DNA of 35,279 nt from Lysobacter antibioticus (GTDB lineage: Bacteria; Pseudomonadota; Gammaproteobacteria; Xanthomonadales; Xanthomonadaceae): contig NZ_JMTZ01000046.1 of NCBI RefSeq assembly GCF_000731095.1, positions 1 through 35,279 of the forward strand, in the 5' to 3' direction. Below, piece after piece: positions 5,786 to 19,558 of this stretch. The notes below the pieces were generated by a model. That model saw only the letters and a list, made by a program, of their open reading frames with translations. It searched no databases and was not told the DNA's origin. The first letter of the stretch is position 1, and each line of letters begins with the position of its first letter. Both the position numbers and the translations under genes were made by a program.

Positions 5786-5828
5786 AAGAAAAAGACTCCC
5801 CCTTCCCCTCGGGTGCGGGAAGAGGGAG
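5786..5828 (-). terminator. terminator at the end of the metallophore operon
   Basis: Hairpin arms CTCCC-CTTCCC and GGGAAG-GGGAG (5796-5828, with one-base bulges) lie just beyond the MFS stop. On the minus strand the hairpin is followed by TCTTTTTCTT, a good U-tract for leftward termination. It lies between the convergent trmL and MFS genes. Confidence 0.75.
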
Positions 5829-5853
5829 CAAAGCTATCGAACCGGGTCGGGTC

Positions 5854-7083
5854 TCATGCGGCCGGCAGCGCCTGCGCGCGCGGCGCGCGCAGCAGCAGCG
5901 ACAGGCCCAGCGCGTTGAGCAGGCCGATGGCGCAGAACACCGTCCACGGCAACCACGGCCAGTGCCTCGCCGTCGCCACATCGACCAGCCAACCGCCGGC
6001 GACGTTGCCCAAGCCGCCGCCGATGGCGAGGCTGAGCGAACTCACGCCGAGAAACGTGCCGAGCGCGCGCGGGTCGGCCATGCCGGCGATCAAGGTCTGT
6101 TGGGTCGGGCGGGTCATCACCGCGCCGACCGCGAAGCCGCCGATGCACAACAGGAAACCGGCGAAGCCGTCGGTGAAGCCGATCGCGCCGACCGCCAGCG
6201 ACATCAGCACCACGCCGAGCACCAGCACCTGGGCGGTGCTGAGACGCTGTTCGAGCCAGCGCACCAAGCCGTATTGCAGCAAAACCGTCAGGCCGGCGCT
6301 GACCGCGAACATCACCCCCACGCTGTCGACTTCGCCGGTCAACCGCTGCGCCAGCAGCGGCAGGCTGATGTTGATCTGCACCGCGAGAAACCAGTACAGC
6401 ATCATCAGCACGACCAGGCTCAGGAAAGCGCGGTCGCGGCGCACCAGGTCGAGGCCGTGGCGCAGCGGCGGCGGCTGCTCCGGCATCTCCACCGACGGCA
6501 ACAGGCGCAGGGCGATGACGAAGTTGAGCGCGAAACAGGCCGCGGCGACCAGGCAGACCACGCGGAAGTCGAAACGCAACAAGGCGACCCCGAGCAAGGG
6601 CCCGAGCGTGGTCGCCACGCCACTGACCCAGTTGCTGATCGCGTAATAACGCGGCCGCGTGCGCTCGTCGGTGAGCGCGGCGATGGAAGCCTGGTACGGC
6701 GCCTCGAACATCGCCCCGCCGAGCGCCGACACCGCCATCGCGAACAACAGCAGCGGCAGATCGTCGGCGAAGGCCACGCTGGCGAAGCCGGCCGCGCGCA
6801 GCAACACGCCGAGGCAGATCATGCGGCGAGCGCCGAAGCGGTCCGAGAGCATGCCGCCGACCAGGGCCAATCCCTGCTGGGTCAGTTGCCGCACCGCCAG
6901 GGCCAGGCCGACCGCCGCCGCGGCCAGGCCGACGTCGTTGACGAAGTGCACCGCGACCAGCGGCATCAACATGGCGAAGCCGGTCACCATGAAGAAGGTG
7001 TAGACCAGCAAACCGTTGAGGCCGCGCCGGCGCGCGTCGGCGCCGAGCGGAACGGGTGCGTGCAGCGGCGGGCTCGCGCTCAT
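5854..7083 (-). CDS. MFS transporter, probable metallophore exporter
   Basis: A 409-residue inner-membrane protein with about twelve hydrophobic segments. The loop between segments 2 and 3 has the major facilitator motif A in the form GGMLSDRFGARR, typical of proton-driven drug/metabolite antiporters (DHA1-like). The start ATG at 7083 lies 8 bases past the stop of the DUF364 gene, so the two are translationally close. It is the last gene of the run starting at 19469 and is followed by a terminator. MFS exporters commonly end siderophore gene sets, so I infer export of the product made by the upstream genes; the sequence alone does not fix the substrate. An MdtH-like multidrug role is the alternative. 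Confidence 0.85.
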   Translation of the reverse strand: MSASPPLHAPVPLGADARRRGLNGLLVYTFFMVTGFAMLMPLVAVHFVNDVGLAAAAVGLALAVRQLTQQGLALVGGMLSDRFGARRMICLGVLLRAAGFASVAFADDLPLLLFAMAVSALGGAMFEAPYQASIAALTDERTRPRYYAISNWVSGVATTLGPLLGVALLRFDFRVVCLVAAACFALNFVIALRLLPSVEMPEQPPPLRHGLDLVRRDRAFLSLVVLMMLYWFLAVQINISLPLLAQRLTGEVDSVGVMFAVSAGLTVLLQYGLVRWLEQRLSTAQVLVLGVVLMSLAVGAIGFTDGFAGFLLCIGGFAVGAVMTRPTQQTLIAGMADPRALGTFLGVSSLSLAIGGGLGNVAGGWLVDVATARHWPWLPWTVFCAIGLLNALGLSLLLRAPRAQALPAA

Positions 7084-7091
7084 GGCCGTGC

Positions 7092-7970
7092 TCAGGCCGC
7101 CGCGCGCACCGCGCCGGCGGCGCGATACAGATGGATCGGCGTCGGGTCGGCGCTGAACTGCGAAAACGGAAACGGCTCGGCCGACACCGCGGCGACGCCG
7201 TGGCCGAGAAAGCGCGGCACGATCGCGCTGCCGGTCTGGGCGTAGACGATCAACGGAATGCCGCGTGCGCGCACGCTGGCGAGGATCTCGTCGAAGGAAC
7301 CGTTGCTCAGGGTCATACCGGTGGCGATCACCAGGTCCGCCTGCGCCAGCACCGGCCGCATATCGCGCACCACCTCGGTACCGTCCTGGGTGCGTTGCAG
7401 ATTGAAATCGCAGGGCAGGCAAACGCCGCCCTGGGCCTGGATCGCCGCCACCAGCGGGTTGACCACGCCGATCAGACCCACGCGCATGCCCGGCTCGATC
7501 TTGAGCAGGCCGGCAATGGCCTCGTCGCGCGCCCGCGCCCGCTCCAGCGGCGTTCCGTGCGGCAGCATGAACACCTGCGCCTCGGCCGCCTCGCGATGCG
7601 GCCGCACCAGCGACAGGTACGCATCGAGCGCGGCGACCCGCACCGGCGTGCGTTGATCGCGCAGCAACTCGGCGACGCTGCGCCCGGACAATTCCTCGGC
7701 GATCACCGAGTCGAGCTGATCGCGTTCGACACAACAACCGCCGAAGCCCGACTCCACCCGCAGCACCAGATAGTAGTTGCGGTATTTGGTCTCGGTGCCC
7801 GGGAACTGGGTGCTCTGGCGCACCCAGAACGCGCCGACGGCATGCAGGCCTTCGGGATTCGGGCCGTAGTCGCCGCGCAGCACCGCCTCGGTCAGGGCGG
7901 CGACGTCGATGGGCGGCAGTTGGCCGGTGGAAGGTGCGGCAGCGACGGCCGTCGGTGCGGAAAGCGTCAT
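7092..7970 (-). CDS. DUF364 (putative heavy-metal chelation) protein
   Basis: A 292-residue soluble protein. The C-terminal half fits DUF364: a Rossmann-like start RVGLIGVVNPLV (163-174) and the signature ATGMTLSNGSFDEIL (216-230). The N-terminal half (about 62-105) resembles the DUF4213 enolase-N-like part that precedes DUF364. Two cysteine pairs, Cys79-Cys80 in GFGGCCVE and Cys184/Cys187 in CLPC, are possible metal ligands. The family has structures but no firm function; a role in binding metal or finishing the ligand is inference from context. The start at 7970 is the best choice (GAGAA about nine bases upstream); an in-frame extension to 8030 enters repeat DNA. A 299-base gap with a repeat separates it from the ATP-grasp gene. 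Confidence 0.8.
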   Translation of the reverse strand: MTLSAPTAVAAAPSTGQLPPIDVAALTEAVLRGDYGPNPEGLHAVGAFWVRQSTQFPGTETKYRNYYLVLRVESGFGGCCVERDQLDSVIAEELSGRSVAELLRDQRTPVRVAALDAYLSLVRPHREAAEAQVFMLPHGTPLERARARDEAIAGLLKIEPGMRVGLIGVVNPLVAAIQAQGGVCLPCDFNLQRTQDGTEVVRDMRPVLAQADLVIATGMTLSNGSFDEILASVRARGIPLIVYAQTGSAIVPRFLGHGVAAVSAEPFPFSQFSADPTPIHLYRAAGAVRAAA

Positions 7971-8269
7971 GTCGTCGTTCTCGGAGAAGTGGTGCCGGGG
8001 AGGCGCGGCGGATTGCGGTCGATGGAGCAATTGCGGTTGCGGTTGCGGTTGTTGTTACTGCTGTCGTTGCTCCTGCTATCGCTTCTATTGCCCTTGCTGT
8101 TGCCGTTGCCCCCTTTGAGTAGGGGGCCGCGACCGCGCAGCGGACGCGGGAGGATTTGCTGTTGCTGTTGCGGCTACTTGGCCTCGAACTAAAAGCGAAA
8201 GCCCCCCCGCCCCCTTTTCAAAGGGGGGAACAGCAATGGCATAGCGGAAGCGATTCCGTGCAGTCATGC
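7971..8269. repeat. intra-operon gap with composite repeat, copy 2
   Basis: The gap between the ATP-grasp and DUF364 genes has no credible gene. It holds degenerate TTGCGG/TTGCTG-type hexamers (8030-8108), a CCCCC..GGGGG hairpin (8109-8126), the core GCGACCGCGCAGCGGACGCG followed by GGATTTGCTG, and a second hairpin at 8210-8228 (CCCCCTTT/AAAGGGGG). Parts and spacing match copy 1 at 1965-2165. Because the other gaps in this gene run are 0-27 bases, the element looks like a later insertion into an operon. Confidence 0.8.
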
Positions 8270-9610
8270 TCACGCCGCAGTCGACGCCAGTTCTGCAGCA
8301 GCGCGAGTCCGGGCCTCCTCCCTGTCATCCGCTTGCGTATCCGGGCCCGCGCTCGTGTCCGCATAACGCAGCGTGACCTCGGCCAGCGCCCGCTCGGCAT
8401 ACCCGCGCGCCTGTCCGCCTACCCGATCGACCGCGATCACGTGGCCGAGGTAACAGGCATTGTCGATCGGCGCCGCGACTTCGCTGCCGGCCACCGCGCT
8501 CAGGCTCCAGCGCTCGATGTTCGGATCGGCCTCCAGGCTCGCGGCGCCGTCCATCGCCAGCACGTAGCCGCCGCGCGGCGGCACCAGGAACTTGATCGCG
8601 GCGCTGGCGACGCCGGTGTCGCGACGCCGCAGGTCCGGTTCGCGGCCCAGGGCGAGCTCGATCTGCGCATCGAGCAGGTCGATGCCGGTCACGCGCTGGA
8701 TCAACTCGGCGATGTAGTTGCCGCCCGGGCGCGGATTGATCTCGACGACGCGCGGCCCGTCCGCAGTCAGCTTGACCTCGGTGTGGCTGATGCCGTGGTC
8801 GTGTCCGACCGCGTCGAGCGCGCCGAGCACCAAGGCTTCGATGGCCGCGGCGTCGGCCGGATCGAGCCGGGCCGGGAACATATGCCCGTCCTCGATGAAA
8901 TACGGAAACCCGGTCAGGCTCTTGTCGGTGATGCCGATGACCGTGGTCCGGCCCCGATAGGTGCAGGCCTCGACGCTGAACTCCTCGCCGCGCAGGTACT
9001 CCTCCAGCAACAGCAAGGGAACGCGTGCCTGTTCGCGGAAATTACGCGGAAACTGTTCGAGCGCGTCGAAAGCCGCGCACAGCTCTTCCTCGTCGTGGAT
9101 CAGGCGTACGAACGCGCTCGATGCCAGGTCGGTCGGCTTGACGATCAAGGGATAGCCGATCCGCTGCGCCTCGCTGCGGGTCTCGTCCCAGGAGCGGGTC
9201 ACCGCAAACTTCGGGTTCGGCAGGCCGGCGCCTTCGATCGCCTCGCGCACCCGGTCCTTGCGCCGCTCCATCACCACGTTGGCCGAGAACGCCTGCGGCA
9301 GCCCCAGCGCCTGCGCGACCTGGGCCACGGTGTCGATGTAGTAATCGCAGATCGTCACCACGCCGTCGAACTTGAGGATGGCGTGCTGGGCGCGCAGGAA
9401 TTCGATCAGCGCCGGCACGTCGTTGGTCTCGGCGGTCAGCACGTGATCGGCGTGGTCGATTACCGGGTGGATCTCCTGCGAACGCGCGTCGCGGTAATGA
9501 CCGCGGTTGCGGGTGACGAAGGTGTAGCGGTGGCCGAGCCGGCCGATCGCGGGCGGGAAGATGCGGCCGGTGCCGCCGACCCAGCTTTCGATCATCAACA
9601 GGTGCGCCAT
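8270..9610 (-). CDS. ATP-grasp amino-acid/peptide ligase
   Basis: A 446-residue ATP-grasp enzyme that would activate a carboxylate as acyl-phosphate and join it to an amine. Visible landmarks: an N-terminal pre-ATP-grasp domain (1-115), the ATP-binding lysine Lys158 in YPLIVKPTD, the adenine-contacting EEYLRGEEF (203-211), and the metal-binding ending EVKL...VVEINPRPGG with Glu290, Asn292 and Arg294. This is the layout of stand-alone ligases such as carnosine synthase or dapdiamide synthetase rather than of purine or cell-wall enzymes. GGAG lies about nine bases before the ATG at 9610, which is 23 bases past the stop of the PLP gene. In context it probably condenses the PLP-enzyme product with another acid; substrates are not predictable from sequence. 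Confidence 0.88.
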   Translation of the reverse strand: MAHLLMIESWVGGTGRIFPPAIGRLGHRYTFVTRNRGHYRDARSQEIHPVIDHADHVLTAETNDVPALIEFLRAQHAILKFDGVVTICDYYIDTVAQVAQALGLPQAFSANVVMERRKDRVREAIEGAGLPNPKFAVTRSWDETRSEAQRIGYPLIVKPTDLASSAFVRLIHDEEELCAAFDALEQFPRNFREQARVPLLLLEEYLRGEEFSVEACTYRGRTTVIGITDKSLTGFPYFIEDGHMFPARLDPADAAAIEALVLGALDAVGHDHGISHTEVKLTADGPRVVEINPRPGGNYIAELIQRVTGIDLLDAQIELALGREPDLRRRDTGVASAAIKFLVPPRGGYVLAMDGAASLEADPNIERWSLSAVAGSEVAAPIDNACYLGHVIAVDRVGGQARGYAERALAEVTLRYADTSAGPDTQADDREEARTRAAAELASTAA

Positions 9611-9633
9611 GAGGGGTTGCTCCAGGGAGGGAT

Positions 9634-10695
9634 TCAGTGCGCGGCGACGAGCGCCGCATCGCGTTGCGGCGGCGCTACGGCGTCGTTGGGATCGGCGGCG
9701 AAGTCGGCACGCGCCCAGGCCATCGCCGACCACGGCAGGGCCAGTTCGTCGAGCGAGGCGATCGGCTTGGGCTCCAGGCCGCGCGGGTCCAGAGCTTGTT
9801 CGTAATGGGCGAACACGCCCTCGACGTAGCGGTGGCCGGTGTCGGCGGCGAGAAAGACGATATTGCGTTCGGGCCGGCGCGCGGCTTCGCGCGCGGCGAC
9901 CAGATAACAACAGCCCGTCGATAATCCGGCGAACACCGCGTGTTCGCGCAGCAGGGCCACCGAACCCGACAGACCGTAATCGAACGAGACCCAGTGAATC
10001 TGGTCGTACAAGCGATGCTGCACGTTGCGGAACGGAATCGAACTGCCGATGCCGGCGATGATGATGCCGGGGTCTTCGATGTGCTGGCAGCCGAAGGTCA
10101 TGCTGCCGAACGGTTGCACGCCGATCAGTTCGACCGCGGCATCGTGCGCGCGCAAGGCTCTGGCCAGACCGCCGGTGGAACAGCCCGAGCCGACCCCGCC
10201 GACCACGCTGAGCGCGCTGTCGCCAAGAACATCGGCGAACAAAGCCGCGACCGGCTCGTAACCGTCGTAATGGATGTCGTCGTGGTACTGCTGCATCCAG
10301 TGCACGTCGGGGCGGCTGTCGAGCAGCTCGCGGATGCGCGCCACGCGCAGGCTCTGGTCCATCTTCAGGGTCGCCTGCGGCTCGACCTGCTCGATGGTCG
10401 CGCCGAGGATGCGCAGCTGCAGCATCAAGGTGCGGTCGACGGTCTTGGAGCCGACGATGTGGCAATGCAGGCCGTACTTGTGACAGGCCAGGGCCAGTGC
10501 GTACGCGTAGATGCCGCTGGAGCTGTCCATCAGGGTCGCGCCCGGGCGGATGCGGCCGCTGGCGAGCAGGCGCTCGACCGCGACCAGGGTCGAATAGACC
10601 TTCATGGTCTCGAAGCGCGCGACATAGAGATTGGCACCCAGCCGGACCAGGTCGGGCGCCTTGATCGCGTCGGCGATATGCGTGTGCATGCTCAT
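9634..10695 (-). CDS. fold-type-II PLP enzyme, cysteine-synthase/SbnA-like
   Basis: A 353-residue pyridoxal-phosphate enzyme of the cysteine synthase superfamily. Lys32 in FETMKVYSTL sits where the Schiff-base lysine of NPTGSxK is expected, and GGVGSGCSTGG (166-176) is the phosphate-binding glycine loop. The substrate loop, normally TSGNTG, reads SSSGIYA (58-64), so the enzyme is diverged and probably not an ordinary cysteine synthase. Relatives such as SbnA (staphyloferrin B) and the aspergillomarasmine and EDDS enzymes use O-phosphoserine and an amine to make diamino or aminocarboxylate units. The ATG at 10695 shares one base with the kinase stop (TGATG), indicating coupled translation. I infer beta-replacement on a phospho-amino acid made by that kinase. 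Confidence 0.85.
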   Translation of the reverse strand: MSMHTHIADAIKAPDLVRLGANLYVARFETMKVYSTLVAVERLLASGRIRPGATLMDSSSGIYAYALALACHKYGLHCHIVGSKTVDRTLMLQLRILGATIEQVEPQATLKMDQSLRVARIRELLDSRPDVHWMQQYHDDIHYDGYEPVAALFADVLGDSALSVVGGVGSGCSTGGLARALRAHDAAVELIGVQPFGSMTFGCQHIEDPGIIIAGIGSSIPFRNVQHRLYDQIHWVSFDYGLSGSVALLREHAVFAGLSTGCCYLVAAREAARRPERNIVFLAADTGHRYVEGVFAHYEQALDPRGLEPKPIASLDELALPWSAMAWARADFAADPNDAVAPPQRDAALVAAH

Positions 10696-11639
10696 CAGAA
10701 CCCCGTTTCGGCGAAACGGCACTGGTGGCCCAGGCCGCGGAAGAAGGCCGACAGCTCGCCCATGCGCGCCGGGTCGGGCCGCTCGACGAACAGATAGCCG
10801 AGCAGGCTGCCGGTGTGGGCGACGACGATGCCGTCGGCGGCGAAATCGCTGCGCCGTTCGAGCAAGGCATCGAGGTGGCGCTTGGCGATCACCCCCTGCG
10901 CCAACTGCGCGCTCTGGGTCGCGCAGGCGCAGATGGCGGCGAGGTCGTGCGCGGCGAAGGCCTGCAGCGCGCGCTCGAGATTGTCCCGATAGGCGTCGAG
11001 ATGGCGCTGGTAGTGGGCCAGCAAGGGATGCGCGCACTTCTCGGTCTCGACCGTGCCGCCCTCATCGATGTAACAGGCATGCAGGCGCAACGGCGTATCG
11101 AAGGCCTGCACGATCTGCTGGCGTCCGCTCAGGTACAACGCGTGGGTGTCGAGGAACACGCTGTCGGAACGCTCGATGCCGCGCAGCAGGTCGGCGATCG
11201 CCGCCGGCGCCGAGGCCAGGCCGAAGATCCGATCCAGGCAGCGAATGGTGGCGACGATGTCGGCGGTCGAACTGGCCATGCCCTTGCCGAGCGGCAGTTC
11301 CGAGTCGTGGCTCCAGCGCCCGCTCGGCAGGCGCTTGCCGTGCGCTTGCAGGTATAGCGCGATCGCCTGCCGGCATTTGTCCTTGCCGGCCAGGTCGACG
11401 GCGATGTCGCCCTCGTCGCCCGGGGCGAAATGGATCCAGCTGTATTTGCGCACCGGCAAGGAGATCAGGCCGATGTGCAATTCGCCGTCCTGCGCGTACG
11501 GCCCCTGCAACAGCTCGCCGAGCGTGCCGTGGCAGACGCCGCTGTAGATCTTCGAAGTCCGCTCGCACGACGAGCGCACCTGCGCGCGGGCCCCACCCCG
11601 CGCGTGGTCGTTATCGCGATACCGCTCCTGCCTCAGCAT
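10695..11639 (-). CDS. PduX-like GHMP kinase (L-threonine/serine kinase type)
   Basis: A 314-residue GHMP kinase. The ATP-loop motif PLGKGMASSTADI (116-128) is nearly the PduX form, the N-terminal SGVCHGTLGELLQG matches the family's CGE(I/L)LQG start, and VVAHTGSLLGYLF near the C-terminus matches motif 3. PduX phosphorylates free L-threonine for the cobalamin linker, but no cobalamin genes are present here. Its one-base overlap with a PLP enzyme suggests it makes O-phospho-L-threonine or O-phospho-L-serine for that enzyme, as the serine kinase SbnI does for SbnA. The first 25 or so residues (Arg/Asp-rich) are unconserved, so a start nearer residue 21 (GTG) is possible. The start lies 27 bases after the TonB receptor stop. 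Confidence 0.85.
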   Translation of the reverse strand: MLRQERYRDNDHARGGARAQVRSSCERTSKIYSGVCHGTLGELLQGPYAQDGELHIGLISLPVRKYSWIHFAPGDEGDIAVDLAGKDKCRQAIALYLQAHGKRLPSGRWSHDSELPLGKGMASSTADIVATIRCLDRIFGLASAPAAIADLLRGIERSDSVFLDTHALYLSGRQQIVQAFDTPLRLHACYIDEGGTVETEKCAHPLLAHYQRHLDAYRDNLERALQAFAAHDLAAICACATQSAQLAQGVIAKRHLDALLERRSDFAADGIVVAHTGSLLGYLFVERPDPARMGELSAFFRGLGHQCRFAETGF

Positions 11640-11666
11640 GGCCGCACGCTCCCCAAAACCGCCGAA

Positions 11667-13604
11667 TTAACCGTCGAAATCGACCGCGAGCTGGGCCACG
11701 TAGCGCCGCCCGTCGGTGAGTCCGAAACTGTTGTTGCCGTAGATGTTCCAGGTGTAGGTGTCGCCGACGTTGGCGACCAGCAGGCGCAAGGTCGCCGGCG
11801 CCGAACCGAGCCGGAACCGATAGCGCGCGCCGACATCGACCAAGGTGTAGTCGGGCACGCGGTTACGTCCGTCGCGCGACGCGATGCGTTCGCCGTAGTG
11901 ACTCATCGACAGATCGAACGAAAGCCCCGCCCACGACGGCGGGCGGTATTCGAGATCGGCGCGCAGCACGCGCTCGGTCTGGCCGATCGGGCGATCGCCG
12001 ACCCGGCCCAGGCGTACCGCTTCGCCGCTCACCCGCGGCCGCATCAACACCGCGCCGGCGACCAGGCTCAGGGAGTCCATCGGCCGACCGCTCAGGCTCA
12101 ACTCGACGCCGCGGTGGCGCACTTCGCCGATCGCGCCGTAAACGTTGCGCTCGTCGGTGGTGAAATAGGGTTTACGCACGTCGAAGGCACCGGCCACCAG
12201 CTTCATGCCGTCGGCGAAGGCCCAACGCAGGCCGGCATCGCTCTGCCGCGTGCGGATCGCCGGCAGGGCTTCGTTGCGATTGGCCGCGTCGTCGGGCGCG
12301 ATGCCGCTTTCCTCCAGGCCGCGGGTGTGGCCGGCGTACAAGGCCAGGCGCTTGCCGAGATAGACCGAGACATTGGCGTTCGGCAGCCAGGGCTGATCGC
12401 GCGTTGCGGTGCGCGGCAGGCCCGGTTGGTCGACGCTTTTTTCATAGCGGCTGCGCTGGATGCCGAGGCTGAGTTCGCCGACCTCGCGCCAGCGCCCTTC
12501 ATAGGCCAGGCCGCCGGTCCATTGGCGGACCTGGTCGTGGGTGCGCGGGCGGAACGCGAACGCTGCGGGTTCGGGCATCGGCAAGGGTTCGCCGAGCGGC
12601 CGCACGCCGAAATCCAGGGCCGGCGCCGAACCGCCGTACTCGCTGTCGAGGCGACGGCCGCGTGCGGCGAGGTGCAGCACATGCAGGCGCGGGCCTTCGC
12701 GAAAACTGCGGCTCAGGCGCAGCTCGCCGCTGGTCGAGGCCGAGCGCTGGCGCGGATCGGCGATGACTTTCTCGCGCGCCAGGCCATCGCGGGTGGTGTC
12801 GACGAACAACTCGGCGAAACCGCTCGGCATATTATTGATCGAGCGGAACACGCCGCCGGTCAGGGCCCAGTCGTCGCCGAAGCGCGCCTTGCCGAGCACG
12901 CCGTAGTTGCGGCTGTCGTACTCGTTGTCCGACCAGGTCTGGCCGAAATGACGGCGGCGTTTGATCTTCGGCGGAAGATGATTGCCGGCAGTAATGATCG
13001 TCGGCGCGACTTCCTCGTCGCAGCCGCGCGAGATGCTCCAGAACGGCAGGATCTCGATGTTCTCGGTCGGGCGCCAACGCGGCACCACACCGGCGCGCAG
13101 ATAGCGCGCGTCGGCGCCGTCGTAATACTCCTCGCGCGCATACGAGACACCGGCGGCGATCCCGAGCCGGCCCGGGATCACGGGCAGCTTGGCGTCGAGT
13201 TCCAACGCCGGCGCGCCGTAGGCATTGAGCGCGCCGACCACGCTGATCACGCGCTGGTCGCCGGCCTTCTGCAGGCGATAGTCGACGATGCCGGTCGGCG
13301 CCGGGAACGGATAACTCAACGCCGACAGGCCGACGCGAATGGTCGAGCCCTCGACCAGGCGCGGCGGCACCGTGCCCTGGCGATCGAAATAGACTCCGTC
13401 CATGCGCACGTTGCCGGCGTCGACCGGCGAGAAGCCGCGTACCTGCTTGGTGCTGTACAAGCCGATGGTTTCGTTGCCGAGGGTGGCACCGAACGCGTCC
13501 TCGGCCGCGGTGACGGCGTTGTCGTCGGTGCGTTGCGCCTGCACCGCGCCCGTCGCGGTCGCAGCGATCAGGGCCAAGGCCCAGGCCAGTGCGTCTCGTC
13601 TCAT
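11667..13604 (-). CDS. TonB-dependent receptor with atypical plug
   Basis: A 645-residue outer membrane barrel protein with a signal peptide ending GAVQA-Q (about residue 23). The plug opens at once with AEDAFGATLGNETIGLYS and VRGFSPVDAGNVRMDGVYFD; no ordinary TonB box (DTVTV-like) is evident, and NAVTAAED may serve instead. The rest is a long series of alternating beta strands ending LAVDFDG, without the usual terminal Phe. A NVGDTYTWNIYGNNSFG segment near the end fits the last strands of siderophore receptors. The gene starts three bases after the permease stop, and the kinase gene follows 27 bases later, so it ties the transport genes to the synthesis genes. Ligand unknown; a metal-loaded product of the operon is the natural guess. 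Confidence 0.85.
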   Translation of the reverse strand: MRRDALAWALALIAATATGAVQAQRTDDNAVTAAEDAFGATLGNETIGLYSTKQVRGFSPVDAGNVRMDGVYFDRQGTVPPRLVEGSTIRVGLSALSYPFPAPTGIVDYRLQKAGDQRVISVVGALNAYGAPALELDAKLPVIPGRLGIAAGVSYAREEYYDGADARYLRAGVVPRWRPTENIEILPFWSISRGCDEEVAPTIITAGNHLPPKIKRRRHFGQTWSDNEYDSRNYGVLGKARFGDDWALTGGVFRSINNMPSGFAELFVDTTRDGLAREKVIADPRQRSASTSGELRLSRSFREGPRLHVLHLAARGRRLDSEYGGSAPALDFGVRPLGEPLPMPEPAAFAFRPRTHDQVRQWTGGLAYEGRWREVGELSLGIQRSRYEKSVDQPGLPRTATRDQPWLPNANVSVYLGKRLALYAGHTRGLEESGIAPDDAANRNEALPAIRTRQSDAGLRWAFADGMKLVAGAFDVRKPYFTTDERNVYGAIGEVRHRGVELSLSGRPMDSLSLVAGAVLMRPRVSGEAVRLGRVGDRPIGQTERVLRADLEYRPPSWAGLSFDLSMSHYGERIASRDGRNRVPDYTLVDVGARYRFRLGSAPATLRLLVANVGDTYTWNIYGNNSFGLTDGRRYVAQLAVDFDG

Positions 13605-13607
13605 CGC

Positions 13608-15104
13608 TCAGAGCTCCGTCGGCCAGCGACGCAAACGCCGCCAGGCGAGTGCGGTCAGCAGACCCGCCAGCAGGCACAGCCAACCGATCATCGGCAGCAC
13701 CGCGGCGACCCGCGCGCGCGCTGGCGCCTCGGTGCCGAGATACGCGGGAATGCCGTCGTAATCGGCGAAGTTCATCCGCCCGTAGCTATTGGCCACCGCG
13801 CGCGGCGTCGGCGCGGCGATTTGCCCTTGGATGCGCGGGTAGAACCAATCGCGCAGGCGCAGTTGGTATGCGCGGGTCTGCTGTTCGAAGCGTTCATGAC
13901 GGGTAGCATCGGTGCCGGCAAGCACCGCCAGGGCTTCTTCCAGTCCCAACGGCGGCGCGAGATAGCCGGCCCAGTCCGAGACCCGGCCGCGCCATTCGCG
14001 TGCGGCCTGTTGGCGCTCGCGCAAGGGCAGCAGGCGCCGTTCGAGCTCCGGGGTCAGGAAGGTCATGCGCGTGGCGTAGTCGATCTCGGCCACGCGTTCG
14101 GTCGCCGCGGCGAGTACGGAAGAGCGGCGGAAGGCCGCGCCCACGATCGCGTCGCGCTGCTCGGCGATGGCGTCGTTGGCGCGCCGTTGCGCATCGACAT
14201 AGGCCACCGGCGACGGCGCGTCGCCGAGCCGGGTCGCGAGCGCGTTGCCGAACAGGGGCAGGCCGATCGCGAGCAGCGCCCACACCGCGCTCATCAGGCT
14301 GATCGCGCCGGCGGCGCTGGGCCAGGCCGAGACCACGACGAATCCCAGCGCGGCCCAGAACGACAGGTAAGCCACCACCAGTACCGCCGACGCGATCAGT
14401 TCGGGCCAGGCCGCGGCGAGATCGGCGCCGGCGACCAGGAGTGAGGCAGTCGCCAACACCATCGTCGCCGGCGCGAGCCAGGCGACGATGGCGGCGACGC
14501 GCGCGCCGAGCCAGGTCCGCGGACCGACCCGTTGCGCGGCGATCAAACGCAGCATGCCGTGGTCGCGCTCGAAGGTGGCGAGCAAGCCGATCAACAGCAC
14601 CACCGCGATCGGCAGCAAATACACCAGCACGAAGCCGAGGTCGAAACGTCCCAACCCGAGCCCGCGCGGGTTCTCGAAGTCGTACACCGGTTCGACCCCG
14701 AACGGCGTTTCCAACTTGACCGGCAAGCGCCCGGGCATCAGATCGCTGACCCCGACCGCGAGCGGCGACAACGGCAGGTTCGGCTTGTAGCTGTGCGTAC
14801 GCAGGAAATAGCGGCTGAAGCCCGCGGCGTCGGTCGGGTCCTGCCAGTACGGCACTTCGCTCTCGGCCGGCTCGGCGTAGCGGCGCGCGCGTTCGCGGAT
14901 CTGCGCGGTCCAGGCCGCATCGCTGGCGCGGCTGCGTTCGATCGCCGCGTCCTGGCTTCGATGCAGGGCGGCGCCACTGAGCGCGCCCCACAGCATCGCC
15001 ACGCCGAGCAGGCCGATCACCATCCACAGCAAGCGATTACGTCCGACGTGGCGCAGCTCCCAGCGCCACAACGCGACGAAACCGATGTCGACCGTCGCGC
15101 TCAT
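13608..15104 (-). CDS. ABC permease, DUF3526-type, second subunit
   Basis: A 498-residue membrane protein: one N-terminal membrane span (about 25-45), a roughly 120-residue external loop, then a block of five spans, another extramembrane stretch and a C-terminal span. This is the ABC-2/NosY-like layout with a DUF3526-type insert. It starts in the ATGA overlap with the stop of the preceding permease and is clearly a diverged paralogue of it (shared loop and ERDHGMLRL/RERGTLRL segment after span 3). Together with the ATPase it should form one heterodimeric transporter in the inner membrane. Such units often lie beside TonB receptors in proteobacteria; direction of transport and substrate are not established. 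Confidence 0.85.
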   Translation of the reverse strand: MSATVDIGFVALWRWELRHVGRNRLLWMVIGLLGVAMLWGALSGAALHRSQDAAIERSRASDAAWTAQIRERARRYAEPAESEVPYWQDPTDAAGFSRYFLRTHSYKPNLPLSPLAVGVSDLMPGRLPVKLETPFGVEPVYDFENPRGLGLGRFDLGFVLVYLLPIAVVLLIGLLATFERDHGMLRLIAAQRVGPRTWLGARVAAIVAWLAPATMVLATASLLVAGADLAAAWPELIASAVLVVAYLSFWAALGFVVVSAWPSAAGAISLMSAVWALLAIGLPLFGNALATRLGDAPSPVAYVDAQRRANDAIAEQRDAIVGAAFRRSSVLAAATERVAEIDYATRMTFLTPELERRLLPLRERQQAAREWRGRVSDWAGYLAPPLGLEEALAVLAGTDATRHERFEQQTRAYQLRLRDWFYPRIQGQIAAPTPRAVANSYGRMNFADYDGIPAYLGTEAPARARVAAVLPMIGWLCLLAGLLTALAWRRLRRWPTEL

Positions 15105-16504
15105 GGCCGCATCCTCCGCGCCGCCAGCGCCAACGCCGCCCAGGCCGCCGCGCACCAGCCCAGCAAGGCCAGCAAGGCCGGCGTGCTCACGCCCCAGGCG
15201 CTCGCCAACGGCGGCACGCGATGGCGGAACTCGGGGATCTGCGCCCACAGCGAAGCATCGTTGGTATGACGCGGCCCCTCGCCGTTGAGCGGATGCGCCA
15301 TCACGTCCTGGTTCATGCGATTGACCAACTCGCGCCGGTAGCGTTCGGCGCCATCGACGAAGCGTCGGTGATGGACGAAGTCGCTGCCGGCCAGGGCCGG
15401 CGACAGACTCTGCATCGCCGCCATCGGCGACAGCAGGCCCAGCACGGCATAGCCGCGATCCTGCGCTTCGACGCGGTCGTAGAAACCGCCGAGCACGCGG
15501 TCGAACACCGCATGCGAATGCCGCTCGCTCAGATCGAGTTCGGCGCCGCGCAGATCGACCCGCAACTCGTCCTTGCTCGCCGCGCCGTACTGCGCCAGCA
15601 GCTTGGCCTGGTTGGCCTTGGCATCCTCGGCGGTCCAGAACGCCGGCGCCTCGTCGAGCAAACGCTGCTTGACCGCCTGGGTCGACGGCAACGGCTGCGC
15701 GCTGTCGACCGCGCTGTTGGCCCAGCGCGGCAAGGCCAGGCCGAACACGATCCACAGACCGAACAACAGCGCCAACGCCGCGCGCACACTGCCGGCGAGC
15801 ATCGACACCGCAATGCCGACCGCGGTCAGCAAGGCCAGATACAGCGCCATCGTCAGCGTCCATAAGCCCAGGCGCGTGGCGGTGTCGAGGTCGAACACGC
15901 CCAGGACGAAGCTCGATGCAGCGGTCGCAGCGGTCACCGGCAGCAGCAAGACCAACACGAGTGCAGACCAGATCGCCAAGGCCTTGCTGATCACGATCGC
16001 GCGCGGCCGGATCGCCGCGCCCAGCGCCAAGCGCAAGGTGCCGCGTTCGCGGTCCATCGCCACCGCGGTGAAGGCAAGCAGGAAAGCGACCAAGGGCGCG
16101 AAGCCGATCAGCAGCCCGGCCGGACTGACCAGGCCGGCGCGCTGCAGCATCGAGGCCTCGCCTTGCGGCCGGTACAGCATGTCGTTCTGCACATGCGCTT
16201 CCAGCCAGACCGCCTGGCCCACGAAGGGCTCCACGCCGGGATCGAGCGCGGCCAGCACCGGCGTCGGCTTGAAGGCGTAGATGCTGTAATGCGCGGCCGA
16301 GTGCGGGTCTTTCTCGCCCTGGCCCAGCCAGCGCGCGCGCTCGGCGCGGCCGATCTCGCTCTTGGCCGCATTGGTCGTGGCGATCGCATCCAGATTGACC
16401 GCGAACGCCAGCAACACCAAGGCGCCCAGGCAAAGCAAGGCCCACCACGCCCGACGGTCGCGACGCAGCAGCGTCCATTCGTAACCGGTCAGCGACGCGC
16501 TCAT
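15101..16504 (-). CDS. ABC permease, DUF3526-type, first subunit
   Basis: A 467-residue inner-membrane protein with an N-terminal span (about 21-40), a large periplasmic loop, a cluster of five hydrophobic segments in the middle, a second soluble stretch and a last span near the C-terminus. The short cytoplasmic segment MDRERGTLRLALG after an early span is typical of ABC-2/NosY-type permeases, which couple to NosF-like ATPases. Its ATG at 16504 overlaps the ATPase stop by four bases (ATGA), and its own stop overlaps the next permease in the same way, so the three subunits are made in step. Substrate unknown. Confidence 0.85.
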   Translation of the reverse strand: MSASLTGYEWTLLRRDRRAWWALLCLGALVLLAFAVNLDAIATTNAAKSEIGRAERARWLGQGEKDPHSAAHYSIYAFKPTPVLAALDPGVEPFVGQAVWLEAHVQNDMLYRPQGEASMLQRAGLVSPAGLLIGFAPLVAFLLAFTAVAMDRERGTLRLALGAAIRPRAIVISKALAIWSALVLVLLLPVTAATAASSFVLGVFDLDTATRLGLWTLTMALYLALLTAVGIAVSMLAGSVRAALALLFGLWIVFGLALPRWANSAVDSAQPLPSTQAVKQRLLDEAPAFWTAEDAKANQAKLLAQYGAASKDELRVDLRGAELDLSERHSHAVFDRVLGGFYDRVEAQDRGYAVLGLLSPMAAMQSLSPALAGSDFVHHRRFVDGAERYRRELVNRMNQDVMAHPLNGEGPRHTNDASLWAQIPEFRHRVPPLASAWGVSTPALLALLGWCAAAWAALALAARRMRP

Positions 16505-17229
16505 GCGGCGAGCTGCTCCAGATACAGGGCTTCGATCTCGGTCGCCGACAGTTCGTCGGTATGACGTTCGACCAGCAGACGCCCGGCGCGCAGGATGCCG
16601 AGCCGATGCGCCACATCCTTGACCCGATACAGATCGTGGGTCGCCATCAGCACCGCGATGCCGCGCTTGGCCGCCGCGCGCACGCCTTGCGAGAGGTCGT
16701 TGGCGGCGCTGGCGTCGAGCCCCGAGGTGGGTTCGTCGAGCAGCAACAACTGCGCATTCTTGGCCAGGGCGATCGCCAGGCCGACCTTCTGGCGCATGCC
16801 TTTCGAAAATCCGGCGGCGCGGCGACTGTGCGCCTCCTCCTGCAAACCGGCTTCGCTGAGCAACGCGCGCGCCTGCGCATCGTCGAGACGGCGCCCGCCG
16901 AGCAGGGCGAAATAGCTCAGGTTCTCGATCGCGTTGAGAGTGGGATGCAGCATCACCGTTTCCGGCAGGTAGGCGATCTTGGCCCGTGCCGCGAGCGGGT
17001 CGCGGTCGACGCGGGTGCCGGCGACGTCGATATGGCCCGCCTCCGGCGCCAGGAAGCCGAGGATCAGGTTCAAGGCGGTGGTCTTGCCGGCGCCGTTCGG
17101 GCCGAGCAAGGCATAAACCTCGCCCGGCGCGATCGCCAGCGACAAGGCTTCTAGCGCATGGCGCGCACCGAAGTCCTTGCGCACCTCGTGCAGGCGCAGC
17201 GCGTCGCTGCGGGTTTCCAGCAGACTCAT
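16501..17229 (-). CDS. ABC transporter ATPase (NosF-like)
   Basis: A 242-residue nucleotide-binding subunit. Walker A is GPNGAGKTT, the signature loop is FSKGMRQKV, Walker B with the catalytic Glu is LLLLDEPTSGLD, and the switch His is in MATHD. Sequence style fits ATPases that power ABC-2/NosY permeases. The ATG at 17229 lies inside the stop of the upstream TonB receptor (ATGA), and the stop at 16501 overlaps the first permease. Longer open sequence to 17943 in this frame is antisense shadow. Expected at the cytoplasmic face, energising the two DUF3526-type permeases. Confidence 0.93.
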   Translation of the reverse strand: MSLLETRSDALRLHEVRKDFGARHALEALSLAIAPGEVYALLGPNGAGKTTALNLILGFLAPEAGHIDVAGTRVDRDPLAARAKIAYLPETVMLHPTLNAIENLSYFALLGGRRLDDAQARALLSEAGLQEEAHSRRAAGFSKGMRQKVGLAIALAKNAQLLLLDEPTSGLDASAANDLSQGVRAAAKRGIAVLMATHDLYRVKDVAHRLGILRAGRLLVERHTDELSATEIEALYLEQLAA

Positions 17230-19469
17230 AGGTTCACCCGGAAAGTCAGTTCGACGCTGCGCGGCGGCGCGATCACCAATTGGTCGGCAGCGCCGCCGGA
17301 CCAGTCGGCATAGAAGGCATCGCCGAGGTTGCGCCCGTGCAGGGCGATCTCGCCGAACGGCAGGCGGTAGGCGACGGAGGCGTCCCAGACGTCGTGGCCG
17401 CCGACGCGGATGCTGTTGGCGTTGTTGGTGTAGAAGGCGCCGACATGACGCACGCCGCCGCCGAGGGTCAGCGGGATCGCCTCGAAGCGATAGCTCGCGT
17501 ACAGGTTGGCGACGCGCTCGGGCACGTTCGGCGGCACGTTGCCGGCGCGGTCGACGCCGCCGGCTTCGCGCAGTTCGTCGAAGCGCGCATCGAGCGCGGC
17601 CAAGCTCGCATCCAGACGCAGGCCGCGGGTCAGCGCCGCCGATGCCGACAGTTCGATGCCGCGCGAGGACTGGCGCCCGCCCTGCACCGACAGATTCGCA
17701 TTGAGCGGATCGCGGGTGACGATGTCGTCCTGCTCGATCCAGTAACCGCCCAGGCTGAGGTCGATGCGGTCCTGCCAGAAGCTGCTCTTGATGCCGGCGT
17801 CGACGGCGCGGCCGTGGGTCAGCTCGAAGCGCGAATTGGCCAGCGACAGCAGCGGCAGGCTGCCGACCGGCGCGACCGCCTCGCTGTACTGGGCGAACAA
17901 CTGGGTCTTCGGGCTGAGGTCGAATACCGTGCCGAGCCGCCACGACAAGGGTTCGTAACGCCGCTCGAACCGGGTCAGCGCTGCGGTGTTGAGGTCGCGG
18001 ATGCTGCGTTCGAGTTCGATGCGGTCGTAACGCAGCCCGGCCAGCAGCAACCAGCGCGGACTCAGGTTGAGCGCGTCTTCGGCGAACACCGAGGCGACCC
18101 GGGTCGTCGAGTCGAAATCGACGCGGTTGCCGGTGCCGGGAAAGTTGCGCGCAACGTCGTCGAAGGACACCCGGCCGCGGACCGGCGCGAACGGGTCGAC
18201 CGCCGTGGTCGTGCCGAAACGGCGCATGACGAAGAAGTCGCCGTCGCTGAACTCGACCCCGACCGAGGCCCGGTTGCGACGCCCGGCCAGGCGGTGCTCC
18301 GAGAACAGGGTCGCGCGTTCCACCCAGAAGCGATGTTCGTGTTCGATCCGGGTGGTGCCGCGATCGAGCAGGCCGCTGCGGCGGTTATAGGTATAGGTCT
18401 CGGAATTCAGCCAGCGCCGCTTGGCGTCGTAATAGCCGAACTCGTTGCTGAAACGCAGACCGTCGCTGAGCTGCCAGCTCACCCGCGAGCGCAGCCAGTC
18501 GCTGCGTGCGTCCTGTACGCCGTTGTCGACGTTGTAGTTGCGCTTGCGCAGGGAGCGGTCGAGCACGTAGTCGCTGCCGCTGCGCACCAGCCCGCTCGGC
18601 TCGCGGGCGATGGCACGCGGCAGCAGGGGCGTGCCCCAGTAGGCGGTGTCGTAGTCGTCTTCGTAATGATCCAGGGCCAGATCGATGTCGAGCGCGTCGC
18701 TCGGACGCCAGCGCGCGGCCAGCGTCGCCGAGGTCGCCTCACTGGCGGTGTCGTCGACATAACCGTCGCTGCGACGATGGCTGGCCACCGCGCGCAAGGC
18801 GAAGCGATCGCTGAGCGGAATGTTCGCGTCGAGCGCATAACGCTGGCTGCCGAAGCTGCCCCAGCCGGCCATGCCTTCGAAAGCGCGGGCATCCACAGCA
18901 CTGTCGCCGAGCTGCGGCCGCTTCGGCACCAGGTTGATCGCGCCGGCCAGCCCGCCCTCGCCGTACAGCACCGAGGCCGGGCCCTTGAGCACTTCGATGC
19001 GCTCGAAGCTCCAACTGTCGAAGTCGCGCGTGACCAACGGCGCCGCGGTCTGGCGCACGCCGTCGTAGAGCAAGGCGATGGCGCCGCCGGTGAACCCGCG
19101 CATCGAGGTCATGCCCGGCGACGACGGCAACTGCCCGGCCAATACGCCGGGCGCGGCGTTGAGCGCATCGACGCTGCCGCGCAGGCCGCGGGCCTGGATC
19201 GCGTCCTGGCTCAGCACTTCGACCATCGCCGGGGTCTCGCGCGCGGTCAGGCCGAGCCGCGAACCGGTGGCGTTGGCGGTGTCGAGCGGCGCGGTGGCGG
19301 CGCGCCGGCCCTCGACGGTGACCGTGTCGAGCAGGGTCGCCGCCGCGCCGCCGGCGGCCTCCTGTGCCGCCGCCGGCGACGCCAACGTCACCGATGCCAA
19401 AGCCGATGCGAGCGTCATCCGCCCGAAGTACGCCGCACCTGCCCGGCTGCCCTGCTTGCCTGCGCTCAC
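17226..19469 (-). CDS. TonB-dependent siderophore-type receptor
   Basis: A 747-residue outer membrane receptor and the first gene of the operon. A signal peptide ends near ASPAAAQ (about residue 36). The TonB box is LDTVTVEG, followed by the plug (ETPAMVEVLSQD, the GFTGGAIALLYDGVRQ strand, and VLKGPASVLYGEGGLAGAINLVPKRP), which is the FhuA/FoxA-like siderophore-receptor pattern. The barrel ends VELTFRVNL. Translation starts at GTG 19469 with GAGGA about six bases upstream; no ATG fits. The stop overlaps the ABC ATPase start by four bases. A palindrome and promoter-like boxes lie directly upstream, implying metal-responsive control. Confidence 0.93.
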   Translation of the reverse strand: MSAGKQGSRAGAAYFGRMTLASALASVTLASPAAAQEAAGGAAATLLDTVTVEGRRAATAPLDTANATGSRLGLTARETPAMVEVLSQDAIQARGLRGSVDALNAAPGVLAGQLPSSPGMTSMRGFTGGAIALLYDGVRQTAAPLVTRDFDSWSFERIEVLKGPASVLYGEGGLAGAINLVPKRPQLGDSAVDARAFEGMAGWGSFGSQRYALDANIPLSDRFALRAVASHRRSDGYVDDTASEATSATLAARWRPSDALDIDLALDHYEDDYDTAYWGTPLLPRAIAREPSGLVRSGSDYVLDRSLRKRNYNVDNGVQDARSDWLRSRVSWQLSDGLRFSNEFGYYDAKRRWLNSETYTYNRRSGLLDRGTTRIEHEHRFWVERATLFSEHRLAGRRNRASVGVEFSDGDFFVMRRFGTTTAVDPFAPVRGRVSFDDVARNFPGTGNRVDFDSTTRVASVFAEDALNLSPRWLLLAGLRYDRIELERSIRDLNTAALTRFERRYEPLSWRLGTVFDLSPKTQLFAQYSEAVAPVGSLPLLSLANSRFELTHGRAVDAGIKSSFWQDRIDLSLGGYWIEQDDIVTRDPLNANLSVQGGRQSSRGIELSASAALTRGLRLDASLAALDARFDELREAGGVDRAGNVPPNVPERVANLYASYRFEAIPLTLGGGVRHVGAFYTNNANSIRVGGHDVWDASVAYRLPFGEIALHGRNLGDAFYADWSGGAADQLVIAPPRSVELTFRVNL

Positions 19470-19497: not shown

Positions 19498-19521
19498 AAT
19501 GAAACGATATATCATTTCATT
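19498..19521. promoter_or_regulatory. 24-bp palindrome, candidate metalloregulator operator
   Basis: Left half AATGAAACGATA and right half TATCATTTCATT pair at 11 of 12 positions. The AT-rich palindrome stands out in GC-rich DNA and lies 29-52 bases before the receptor's GTG, just downstream of the candidate promoter. Its GAAA..GATATATC..TTTC layout recalls Fur-superfamily (Fur/Zur) operators but is not a textbook match to either; the regulator is unknown. Confidence 0.7.
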
Positions 19522-19529
19522 GACGAGGC

Positions 19530-19558
19530 AATGTAAGTCGAGGTGAAGGGCGCGTCAA
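19530..19558 (-). promoter_or_regulatory. candidate sigma-70 promoter of the metallophore operon
   Basis: On the minus strand TTGACG (19553-19558) and TACATT (19530-19535) are 17 bases apart, fitting -35 and -10 boxes. Predicted transcription start falls at the edge of the palindrome at 19498-19521, so a bound repressor would block initiation. An alternative -10 inside the palindrome (GATATA) cannot be excluded. Confidence 0.5.

What the first reader, a model, noticed from the sequence alone, without database searches (positions are those of the whole stretch)
5854..19469. Candidate undescribed NRPS-independent metallophore operon
Ten co-directional genes, several with 1-4 base overlaps, combine uptake (two TonB receptors), an ABC unit, four soluble enzymes/proteins (PduX-like kinase, fold-II PLP enzyme, ATP-grasp ligase, DUF364 protein) and an MFS exporter. 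No NRPS, NIS synthetase (IucA/IucC) or opine dehydrogenase is present, so it does not match the siderophore pathways I know. Seen: gene order, motifs, overlaps, flanking palindrome and terminator. Known: SbnA-, aspergillomarasmine- and EDDS-type pathways use PLP enzymes on O-phosphoserine to build metal ligands, and MFS exporters accompany them. Inferred: this set makes, exports and takes back a small amino-acid-based chelator.
Basis: partly seen in the sequence, partly recalled or inferred. Interest (0 to 1): 0.87.

Follow-up and report, generated by a model that had tools for sequence, protein, structure and literature searches.

The report
Zinc-controlled operon for a zinc scavenger
A soil Lysobacter carries a ten-gene operon, apparently switched on by zinc starvation, that looks built to make, release and take back a small zinc-grabbing molecule by a route we found no report of; relatives of its core genes sit behind zinc-type switches in several bacterial phyla.

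Summary
In detail: ten co-directional genes at 5854-19469 (minus strand), four junctions overlapping by 1-4 bases, an operator before the first gene, a hairpin after the last. The palindrome 30 bp before the first gene matches the published E. coli Zur motif exactly; no other place in the 5.53-Mb genome comes within one mismatch. The genome has a Zur homologue and no detectable ZnuA. ATP-grasp and DUF364 genes adjoin in 49 of 51 loci found in Pseudomonadota, Bacillota, Actinomycetota and Chloroflexota, and are fused in five Massilia. Bacillus-type Zur boxes precede 13 of 19 Bacillota copies; some actinobacterial copies have Zur-like boxes. Neighbours in relatives include zigA, zrgA, a zur-like gene, metal-type importers and a dipeptide epimerase. 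Against: Massilia copies have GATAAT (Fur-like) sites, Chloroflexota and gut clostridial copies show no Zur box, and related enzyme sets without DUF364 occur elsewhere, e.g. beside nif genes. The product is unknown. Eight searches of an open-licence paper library found no description. Verdict: probably a new family of Zur-controlled zincophore pathways.

The parts
19500..19519 (-). Zur operator (TGAAATGATATATCGTTTCA; inside a 24-bp palindrome with one mismatched pair, 19498-19521)
   Evidence: 0 mismatches to the E. coli Zur motif TRWNAYRWTATAWYRTNWCA quoted in PMC6103462; only site with <=1 mismatch in the 5.53-Mb genome, reversed-pattern control 0; similar palindromes in other Lysobacter loci
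19530..19558 (-). Candidate sigma-70-like promoter TTGACG-17-TACATT just upstream of the operator
   Evidence: 1 found; shuffles mean 0.8, so not significant on its own; only the position is suggestive
17226..19469 (-). TonB-dependent receptor 1 (siderophore-receptor type)
   Evidence: TIGR01783 245 bits, above its cut-off 223.5; Plug and barrel in Pfam
16501..17229 (-). ABC ATPase of an ABC-2-type unit
   Evidence: PF00005
15101..16504 (-). ABC-2 permease 1 with DUF3526
   Evidence: PF12040, PF12679; the only two PF12040 matches of the genome both lie here, and among 14 control genomes only Caulobacter has the family
13608..15104 (-). Permease 2 with DUF3526
   Evidence: PF12040
11667..13604 (-). 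TonB-dependent receptor 2 (barrel matched, no plug matched)
   Evidence: PF00593 only; TIGR01783 122 bits, below cut-off
10695..11639 (-). GHMP kinase, likely an amino-acid (Thr/Ser) kinase
   Evidence: PF00288 6e-9; ASSTAD loop invariant in the 14 aligned sequences
9634..10695 (-). Fold-II PLP enzyme, divergent SbnA/cysteine-synthase relative (beta-replacement inferred)
   Evidence: PF00291; TIGR03945 130 bits, below the 350-bit cut-off; K32 aligns with the lysine of the GGSIKD motif of the Bacillota enzymes
8270..9610 (-). ATP-grasp amide ligase (L-amino-acid ligase type)
   Evidence: PF13535, PF18603 LAL_C2; nearest solved sequences are L-amino acid ligase 3vot and BacD
7092..7970 (-). DUF364 protein, regular partner of the ATP-grasp ligase
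   Evidence: PF04016; beside the ligase in 49 of 51 loci, fused in 5 Massilia; AlphaFold2 model pLDDT 92.7 matches DUF364 structures 3l5o and 3npg
5854..7083 (-). MFS protein, likely exporter
   Evidence: PF07690; MdtH model 291 bits, below its cut-off of 469
5795..5829 (-). Hairpin with T-run, likely terminator, before the convergent SpoU-family methylase gene
   Evidence: Fold (13-bp stem, then CTTTTTC; z -1.8); convergent gene. The terminator scan does not list it (its loop limit is 8)

Best explanation
This is a Zur-repressed zinc-acquisition operon that makes a small amino-acid-derived zincophore and recovers it loaded with zinc. Step 1 (inferred from sequence, strong): with enough zinc, Zur binds the operator next to the promoter and blocks transcription; zinc starvation releases it. 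Step 2 (inferred from enzyme families, moderate): the GHMP kinase phosphorylates the side chain of threonine or serine; the PLP enzyme replaces the phosphate with an amino-acid amine, giving an N-linked aminocarboxylate; the ATP-grasp ligase joins it to another amino acid by an amide bond, so that the product is a dipeptide-like chelator; DUF364 performs a further, still unknown step (or holds the metal or the intermediate) in partnership with the ligase. Step 3 (inferred): the MFS protein exports it. Step 4 (inferred): one or both TonB-dependent receptors bring the zinc complex back, with the ABC-2/DUF3526 unit acting with them as proposed for Caulobacter znuK and znuGHI.
For: Operator: exact match to the E. 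coli Zur motif, unique in the genome at <=1 mismatch (about 0.0004 exact matches expected from the window's base composition). In 27 proteobacterial-type sequences scanned the motif is present with 0 mismatches in 7, 1 in 4, 2 in 3 and absent at <=2 in 13; five of the 13 are cut at or near the operon start (L012, L013, L015, L017, L026), L015 still showing half of the palindrome at its first bases. L008/L012 and L009/L014 have equal contig lengths and are taken as one contig each. Own genome: a Fur-family protein whose best model of four is Zur (121.8 bits, cut-off 167) and no PF01297 ZnuA. Bacillota: a Bacillus-type Zur box (recalled consensus) upstream of the ligase with <=5 of 20 mismatches in 13 of 19 loci; permuted palindromes mean 0.18, maximum 5 in 500 trials. 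Six Bacillota genomes were searched for the exact core TCGTAATNATTACGA: three have none, three have two places each; in Cohnella phaseoli and Saccharibacillus the two are this operon and a zinc-type ABC-3 permease or a ZigA-like GTPase. Actinobacteria: Zur-like boxes (recalled consensus; 2, 2, 2, 3 mismatches) precede the ligase in L055, L056, L085, L087, and sites with 2 and 3 mismatches precede the DUF364 genes of L095 and the importer genes of L097 (no shuffle control). Neighbours: Aliikangiella L029 continues into ZigA (693.6 bits, above cut-off 600), ZrgA and a Zur-like gene (86 bits, below cut-off); Exilibacterium L028 has ZrgA and an ABC-2/DUF3526 unit. The L034 binding protein is NikA/CntA-like (240 and 122 bits, below cut-offs). 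A dipeptide epimerase is annotated in two actinobacterial operons (family check). Caulobacter znuK and znuGHI are Zur-repressed (PMC4176598, passages).
Against: No expression, binding or metabolite data exist. Massilia copies carry GATAAT-type palindromes in 5 of 5 loci; the Fur-family gene of the Massilia copy tested (L025) scores 69 bits as Fur and 28 as Zur, which points to iron or another metal there. The gut clostridial copies L050/L051 show no Zur box (7 mismatches), nor do the Herpetosiphon loci L038, L053, L059, L062. L018, L020, L021 and L032 do not match the E. coli motif at <=2 mismatches. At 3 mismatches the related pattern AAATGTTATAACATTT does not exceed its reversed control in Aliikangiella (69 versus 98), Exilibacterium (13 versus 29) or the three Massilia genomes (3, 2, 1 versus 8, 9, 9). 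The actinobacterial boxes are only moderately better than permuted ones (20 of 1000 do as well in sum). Related enzyme sets without DUF364 occur beside nif genes, an NRPS gene or cysK/epsC. The import role of an ABC-2-type unit is unproven.
Confidence: 0.79

Rival explanations
1. The operon makes a metallophore for another metal (iron, cobalt, nickel or copper), with Zur-like control reflecting only cross-talk.
For: Massilia loci have Fur-like GATAAT palindromes (5 of 5) and, in the one tested, a local Fur-family gene; Sulfitobacter L043 lies near a cobW gene (538 bits as CobW) and a large ORF that looks like cobN (not tested); opine zincophores are described as binding a broad range of metals (PMC7438024, passages).
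Against: Zur-type boxes of the lineage's own kind in Pseudomonadota, Bacillota and some Actinomycetota; zigA, zrgA and zur-like neighbours; L043 itself has two GTTA-N5-TAAC sites before its genes (read by eye), the Zur motif used for Caulobacter (PMC4176598).
Confidence: 0.12
2. The enzymes make a secreted non-metal product (a dipeptide antibiotic or toxin of the bacilysin/dapdiamide type) and the receptors import something else.
For: BacD and dapdiamide synthase are homologues of the ligase, and MFS exporters accompany bacilysin-type pathways (recalled); partial sets of these enzymes sit in other settings.
Against: The biosynthetic genes follow the receptor and ABC genes behind one Zur operator; importers annotated or matched as metal or peptide/nickel type accompany the core in other lineages.
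Confidence: 0.05
3. DUF364 and the ligase serve internal zinc storage or trafficking and nothing is exported.
For: DUF364 is labelled 'Putative heavy-metal chelation' in Pfam, a label, not a tested function.
Against: An MFS homologue lies in the locus in 30 of 51 loci, and importers accompany the core.
Confidence: 0.04

Closest known systems
Caulobacter crescentus znuK and znuGHI (Zur-repressed TonB receptor and ABC-2 transporter, PMC4176598)
   Same: TonB receptor next to an ABC-2 ATPase and two permeases under a Zur box; DUF3526 found in Caulobacter alone among 14 control genomes
   Different: No biosynthetic genes are named in the passages seen; the two sets were not compared sequence by sequence
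Opine zincophores (staphylopine, pseudopaline, bacillopaline, yersinopine)
   Same: Zinc-linked, with exporter and dipeptide-type or other importers; the Bacillota binding protein tested is CntA/NikA-like
   Different: No opine dehydrogenase or nicotianamine-synthase-like family among the ten proteins; ATP-grasp, DUF364 and PLP enzymes instead
[S,S]-EDDS of Amycolatopsis japonicum (Zur-controlled; PMC6103462 passage, other details recalled) and aspergillomarasmine-type pathways (recalled)
   Same: Zinc-controlled chelator; PLP beta-replacement on an activated serine is the recalled chemistry
   Different: ATP-grasp ligase and DUF364 imply an amide bond; no model of those pathways was at hand to test
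Staphyloferrin B enzyme SbnA / L-Dap synthases
   Same: Same fold-II PLP family
   Different: 130 bits against a 350-bit cut-off; no NIS synthetase family hit in the operon
Rhizobial kinase / cysteine-synthase-like / ATP-grasp-lyase set (Sinorhizobium fredii plasmid, L099)
   Same: Homologues of kinase, PLP enzyme and ligase in the same order (33%, 33%, 27% identity)
   Different: The ligase homologue is the N-terminal part of an 899-residue protein annotated as a lyase; nif neighbourhood; no DUF364, receptor or exporter annotated in the stretch read

Membership tests
Zur regulon member | Zur box in the promoter region | tested here: met
   Exact match to the published E. coli motif, unique in the genome at <=1 mismatch
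Zur regulon member | Zur encoded in the genome | tested here: met
   L066, best of four models PRK11639 Zur, 121.8 bits, though below that model's 167 cut-off
Zur regulon member | Zur binds the promoter and zinc represses it | not testable with these tools
   Needs EMSA and expression data
Opine zincophore cluster | Opine dehydrogenase (CntM) and nicotianamine-synthase-like CntL | tested here: not met
   No such family among the ten proteins
NRPS metallophore cluster | Adenylation/condensation/carrier domains | tested here: not met
   None in the ten proteins
NIS siderophore cluster | IucA/IucC synthetase | tested here: not met
   None in the ten proteins
SbnA (2,3-diaminopropionate synthase equivalog) | TIGR03945 above cut-off | tested here: not met
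   130.2 of 349.95 bits
PduX L-threonine kinase | Match to a PduX model or solved PduX | tested here: inconclusive
   Only GHMP-type kinases matched; no solved relative below E 0.01; PduX likeness is recalled
L-amino-acid ligase (ATP-grasp) | ATP-grasp plus LAL_C2 domains | tested here: met
   PF13535 and PF18603 above cut-off
DUF364 | Sequence family and fold | tested here: met
Zincophore biosynthesis | A secreted zinc-binding metabolite | not testable with these tools
   Needs metabolomics
Caulobacter znuGHI-type unit | ABC-2 ATPase plus two permeases beside a Zur-controlled TonB receptor | tested here: met
   At the level of domains and Zur box only; orthology not tested

The most novel reading that the evidence does not exclude
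A whole undescribed family of zincophore pathways, spread over several phyla and built around DUF364 with a fold-II PLP enzyme and usually an ATP-grasp ligase, most lineages having wired it to their own Zur and their own importer (TonB plus ABC-2, Opp/Nik-type, or FecCD-type). The products would be aminocarboxylate dipeptides unlike the NRPS, NIS and opine classes, and DUF364 would receive its first function.
Probability: 0.66. Interest if true: 0.85.

Novelty: new variant of a known kind. Interest (0 to 1): 0.78.

Why it matters
Few zinc-scavenging metabolites are known, and genome-mining rules for metallophores look mainly for NRPS, NIS or opine enzymes (recalled). A Zur-linked family lacking all three would be missed, yet loci were found in Lysobacter, Paenibacillus and relatives, Streptomyces and a gut clostridial element. 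It gives DUF364, a family with solved structures titled 'unknown function', a testable role, and a clear target for metabolomics under zinc starvation. It may also show how a bacterium with no detectable ZnuA gains zinc.

Tried and rejected

Rows dropped before counts: one search left out L009, L011, L012 (contig present twice by length), L026 (operon start missing) and L048 (short contig), and did not cover the Herpetosiphon and actinobacterial loci (scanned); its 19 Bacillota rows include two near-identical pairs (L047/L060, L050/L051). One search left out L011, L012, L051, L059, L060; the DUF364 alignment A1 used 33 of the 50 proteins it listed plus the window's, A5 used 30.
Full report
WHAT IS THERE. 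The window (68.6% G+C) is contig C46 of a 5.53-Mb genome; its closest named relatives by the ligase are Lysobacter species (79-87% identical in L012-L017). Ten genes run on the minus strand from 19469 to 5854: TonB receptor 1, ABC ATPase, two DUF3526 permeases, TonB receptor 2, GHMP kinase, PLP enzyme, ATP-grasp ligase, DUF364, MFS. Four junctions overlap by 4, 4, 4 and 1 bases; the ligase-DUF364 junction has a 299-base gap. The operon ends in a hairpin with a T-run facing a SpoU-family methylase gene.

THE OPERATOR. Thirty bases before the first start codon lies TGAAATGATATATCGTTTCA. The review PMC6103462 (passages seen) quotes the E. coli Zur motif TRWNAYRWTATAWYRTNWCA; the site matches at every position. 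In the whole genome no other place comes within one mismatch, and the reversed control gives none; the window's base composition predicts about 0.0004 exact matches in a genome of this size, and 100 shuffles of the window gave none at <=1 mismatch. A promoter-like pair lies just upstream, so bound Zur would sit near the transcription start; that pair is not significant alone. In other Lysobacter loci the site varies but stays largely palindromic: GAAATGATATAACGTTTC, GAAATGTTATATCGTTTC. With the motif, 27 sequences were scanned: 7 have it exactly, 4 with one mismatch, 3 with two, 13 not; five of the 13 (L012, L013, L015, L017, L026) are cut at or near the operon start. The genome encodes a Zur homologue and no ZnuA was found; Caulobacter, among the 14 controls, has none either.

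RELATIVES. A pattern-based scan of genome contigs with the ligase gave 51 loci (a scan by six peptide patterns, so not a census). By tblastn at E <= 1e-8, DUF364 adjoins the ligase in 49 of 51 (not L059, L060), the kinase and the close PLP homologue occur in 24 of 51, and an MFS homologue in 30 of 51. In five Massilia loci ligase and DUF364 are one 691-residue frame. Going by the organism names in the record titles (phyla recalled), the loci fall in Pseudomonadota, Bacillota, Actinomycetota and Chloroflexota (Herpetosiphon); L018 (titled Bacillus), L020 (an Acidobacteria MAG) and L021 (a Sphingomonas MAG) carry the proteobacterial-type cluster, so their labels may be wrong. In Paenibacillus L034 the pair is followed by a methyltransferase, a NikA/CntA-like binding protein, permeases (by reading), a double ABC ATPase and a conventional SbnA/CysK-type enzyme; L050 reads alike with an MFS gene added. 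In Streptomyces and Rhodococcus plasmids the annotated order is ligase, DUF364 (unnamed in Rhodococcus), cysteine-synthase-like, dipeptide epimerase, MFS, methyltransferase, binding protein, ABC genes. In Streptomyces SGAir0924 and Tsukamurella plasmids DUF364 (57% and 54% identical to the window's), kinase (30%, 29%) and PLP enzyme (60%, 50%) sit with an annotated MFS gene (not similar to the window's at E 1e-3) and annotated iron-type ABC importers (FecCD-type by my reading), with no ATP-grasp gene annotated. DUF364 plus PLP enzyme is therefore the most constant core.

ZINC LINK IN OTHER PHYLA. In 13 of 19 Bacillota loci a Bacillus-type box (recalled consensus) lies upstream of the ligase with at most 5 of 20 mismatches; permuted palindromes give 0.18 on average and at most 5. 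For the proteobacterial set and consensus, 10 of 25 have at most 4 of 18 mismatches against 0.16 on average (maximum 10); one of 500 permutations reached the observed mean, and the loci are related, so these are not independent events. Six Bacillota genomes were searched for the exact core TCGTAATNATTACGA: three had none, three had two places each. In Cohnella phaseoli and Saccharibacillus deserti one place is this operon and the other stands before a zinc-type ABC-3 permease or a ZigA-like GTPase; in the third both lie on the operon's own contig. Actinobacterial Zur-like sites lie 24-104 bases before the ligase in L055, L056, L085 and L087 (2, 2, 2, 3 mismatches to the recalled box), weaker in L058 (4) and not in L086 (5); 20 of 1000 permutations did as well in sum. 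L095 and L097 have sites with 2 and 3 mismatches before the DUF364 genes and the importer genes respectively; no DtxR-type site with <=5 mismatches was seen in the eight actinobacterial or rhizobial stretches scanned. The Aliikangiella locus runs on into ZigA, a DUF1826 gene, ZrgA and a Zur-like gene, with a second Zur-like site before ZigA. Exilibacterium has ZrgA and a DUF3526 unit beside the cluster. ZrgA is a Zur-repressed zinc-uptake protein in Vibrio (PMC9817125, passages), and znuK and znuGHI of Caulobacter are Zur-repressed (PMC4176598, passages); DUF3526 was found in Caulobacter alone among 14 control genomes.

RESULTS AGAINST. Massilia copies have GATAAT...ATTATC palindromes in 5 of 5 loci, 8-9 mismatches to the Zur consensus, and in the one tested (L025) a Fur-family gene that scores 69 bits as Fur and 28 as Zur. 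L050/L051 and the four Herpetosiphon-type loci show no Zur box. L018, L020, L021 and L032 miss the E. coli motif, although L018 and L021 have a 5-mismatch site and L032 a GTTA-N5-TAAC site read by eye. The 3-mismatch pattern is not enriched in most of the less GC-rich genomes. Related enzyme sets without DUF364 occur in other settings. In Paraburkholderia phymatum a GHMP kinase (Bphy_7478) and a neighbouring PLP enzyme (Bphy_7479) are strongly NifA-dependent (PMC8305402, passages); I did not check that they are homologues.

CHEMISTRY (inferred). The kinase keeps a GHMP phosphate loop. The PLP enzyme keeps the lysine position but lacks the PGGS lead-in and the asparagine of the substrate loop that the Bacillota enzymes have, so its substrates may differ from SbnA's. 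The rhizobial set pairs homologues of kinase, PLP enzyme and ligase with a lyase part (the ligase matches the first half of an 890-residue ligase-lyase model); here the lyase is missing, so I infer that the amino-acid adduct is kept as a chelating arm. A dipeptide epimerase in actinobacteria supports a dipeptide-like product. DUF364 has invariant P186-C187-D188, T194, M219-T220, N223-G224, Q245-T246-G247-S248, E265 and P268, among others, in 34 and 31 aligned sequences and a confident model with the DUF364 fold; its step is unknown.

NOVELTY. Eight searches of the open-licence library (listings and abstract starts seen) showed no paper describing this gene set; the main text of the opine-zincophore survey PMC7438024 does not contain the words ATP-grasp, DUF or Lysobacter. 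Subscription papers are mostly not held, so a description elsewhere cannot be excluded. It works like a Zur-controlled zincophore system; it is not a member of the opine, NRPS or NIS classes.

Noticed in passing
L050 and L051, 1-21245: Hungatella hathewayi and Eisenbergiella tayi carry the cluster in 21,245-base stretches that differ at one base, with what looks by eye like a mobilisation gene at 6968-8383: a recently moved element among gut clostridia, or a shared assembly source.
   Followed up: partly
L023, L024, L025, L031, L057 (about 3600-3840; second site near 7950-7980 in four of five): Massilia versions have GATAAT-type palindromes instead of Zur boxes, and L025 has its own Fur-family gene, suggesting that the pathway was rewired to another metal sensor.
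   Followed up: partly
L099:7797-12638: Sinorhizobium fredii plasmid has a kinase, a cysteine-synthase-like enzyme and an 899-residue ATP-grasp/lyase protein beside nif genes; kinase homologues are common on rhizobial plasmids. Product unknown.
   Followed up: no
L095:5127-13026 and L097:6317-12999: DUF364, kinase and PLP enzyme with iron-type ABC importers and no annotated ATP-grasp ligase: a possible second product type of the same family.
   Followed up: partly
L043:1286-18233: Sulfitobacter copy with an Opp-type binding protein lies near a cobW gene and a cobN-like ORF.
   Followed up: no
window 7971-8269: The gap between ligase and DUF364 holds G-runs and CAACAGCAA-like repeats not expected in a tight operon.
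   Followed up: no
window 11667-13604: The second TonB receptor matches only the barrel in Pfam, with no recognisable plug.
   Followed up: no
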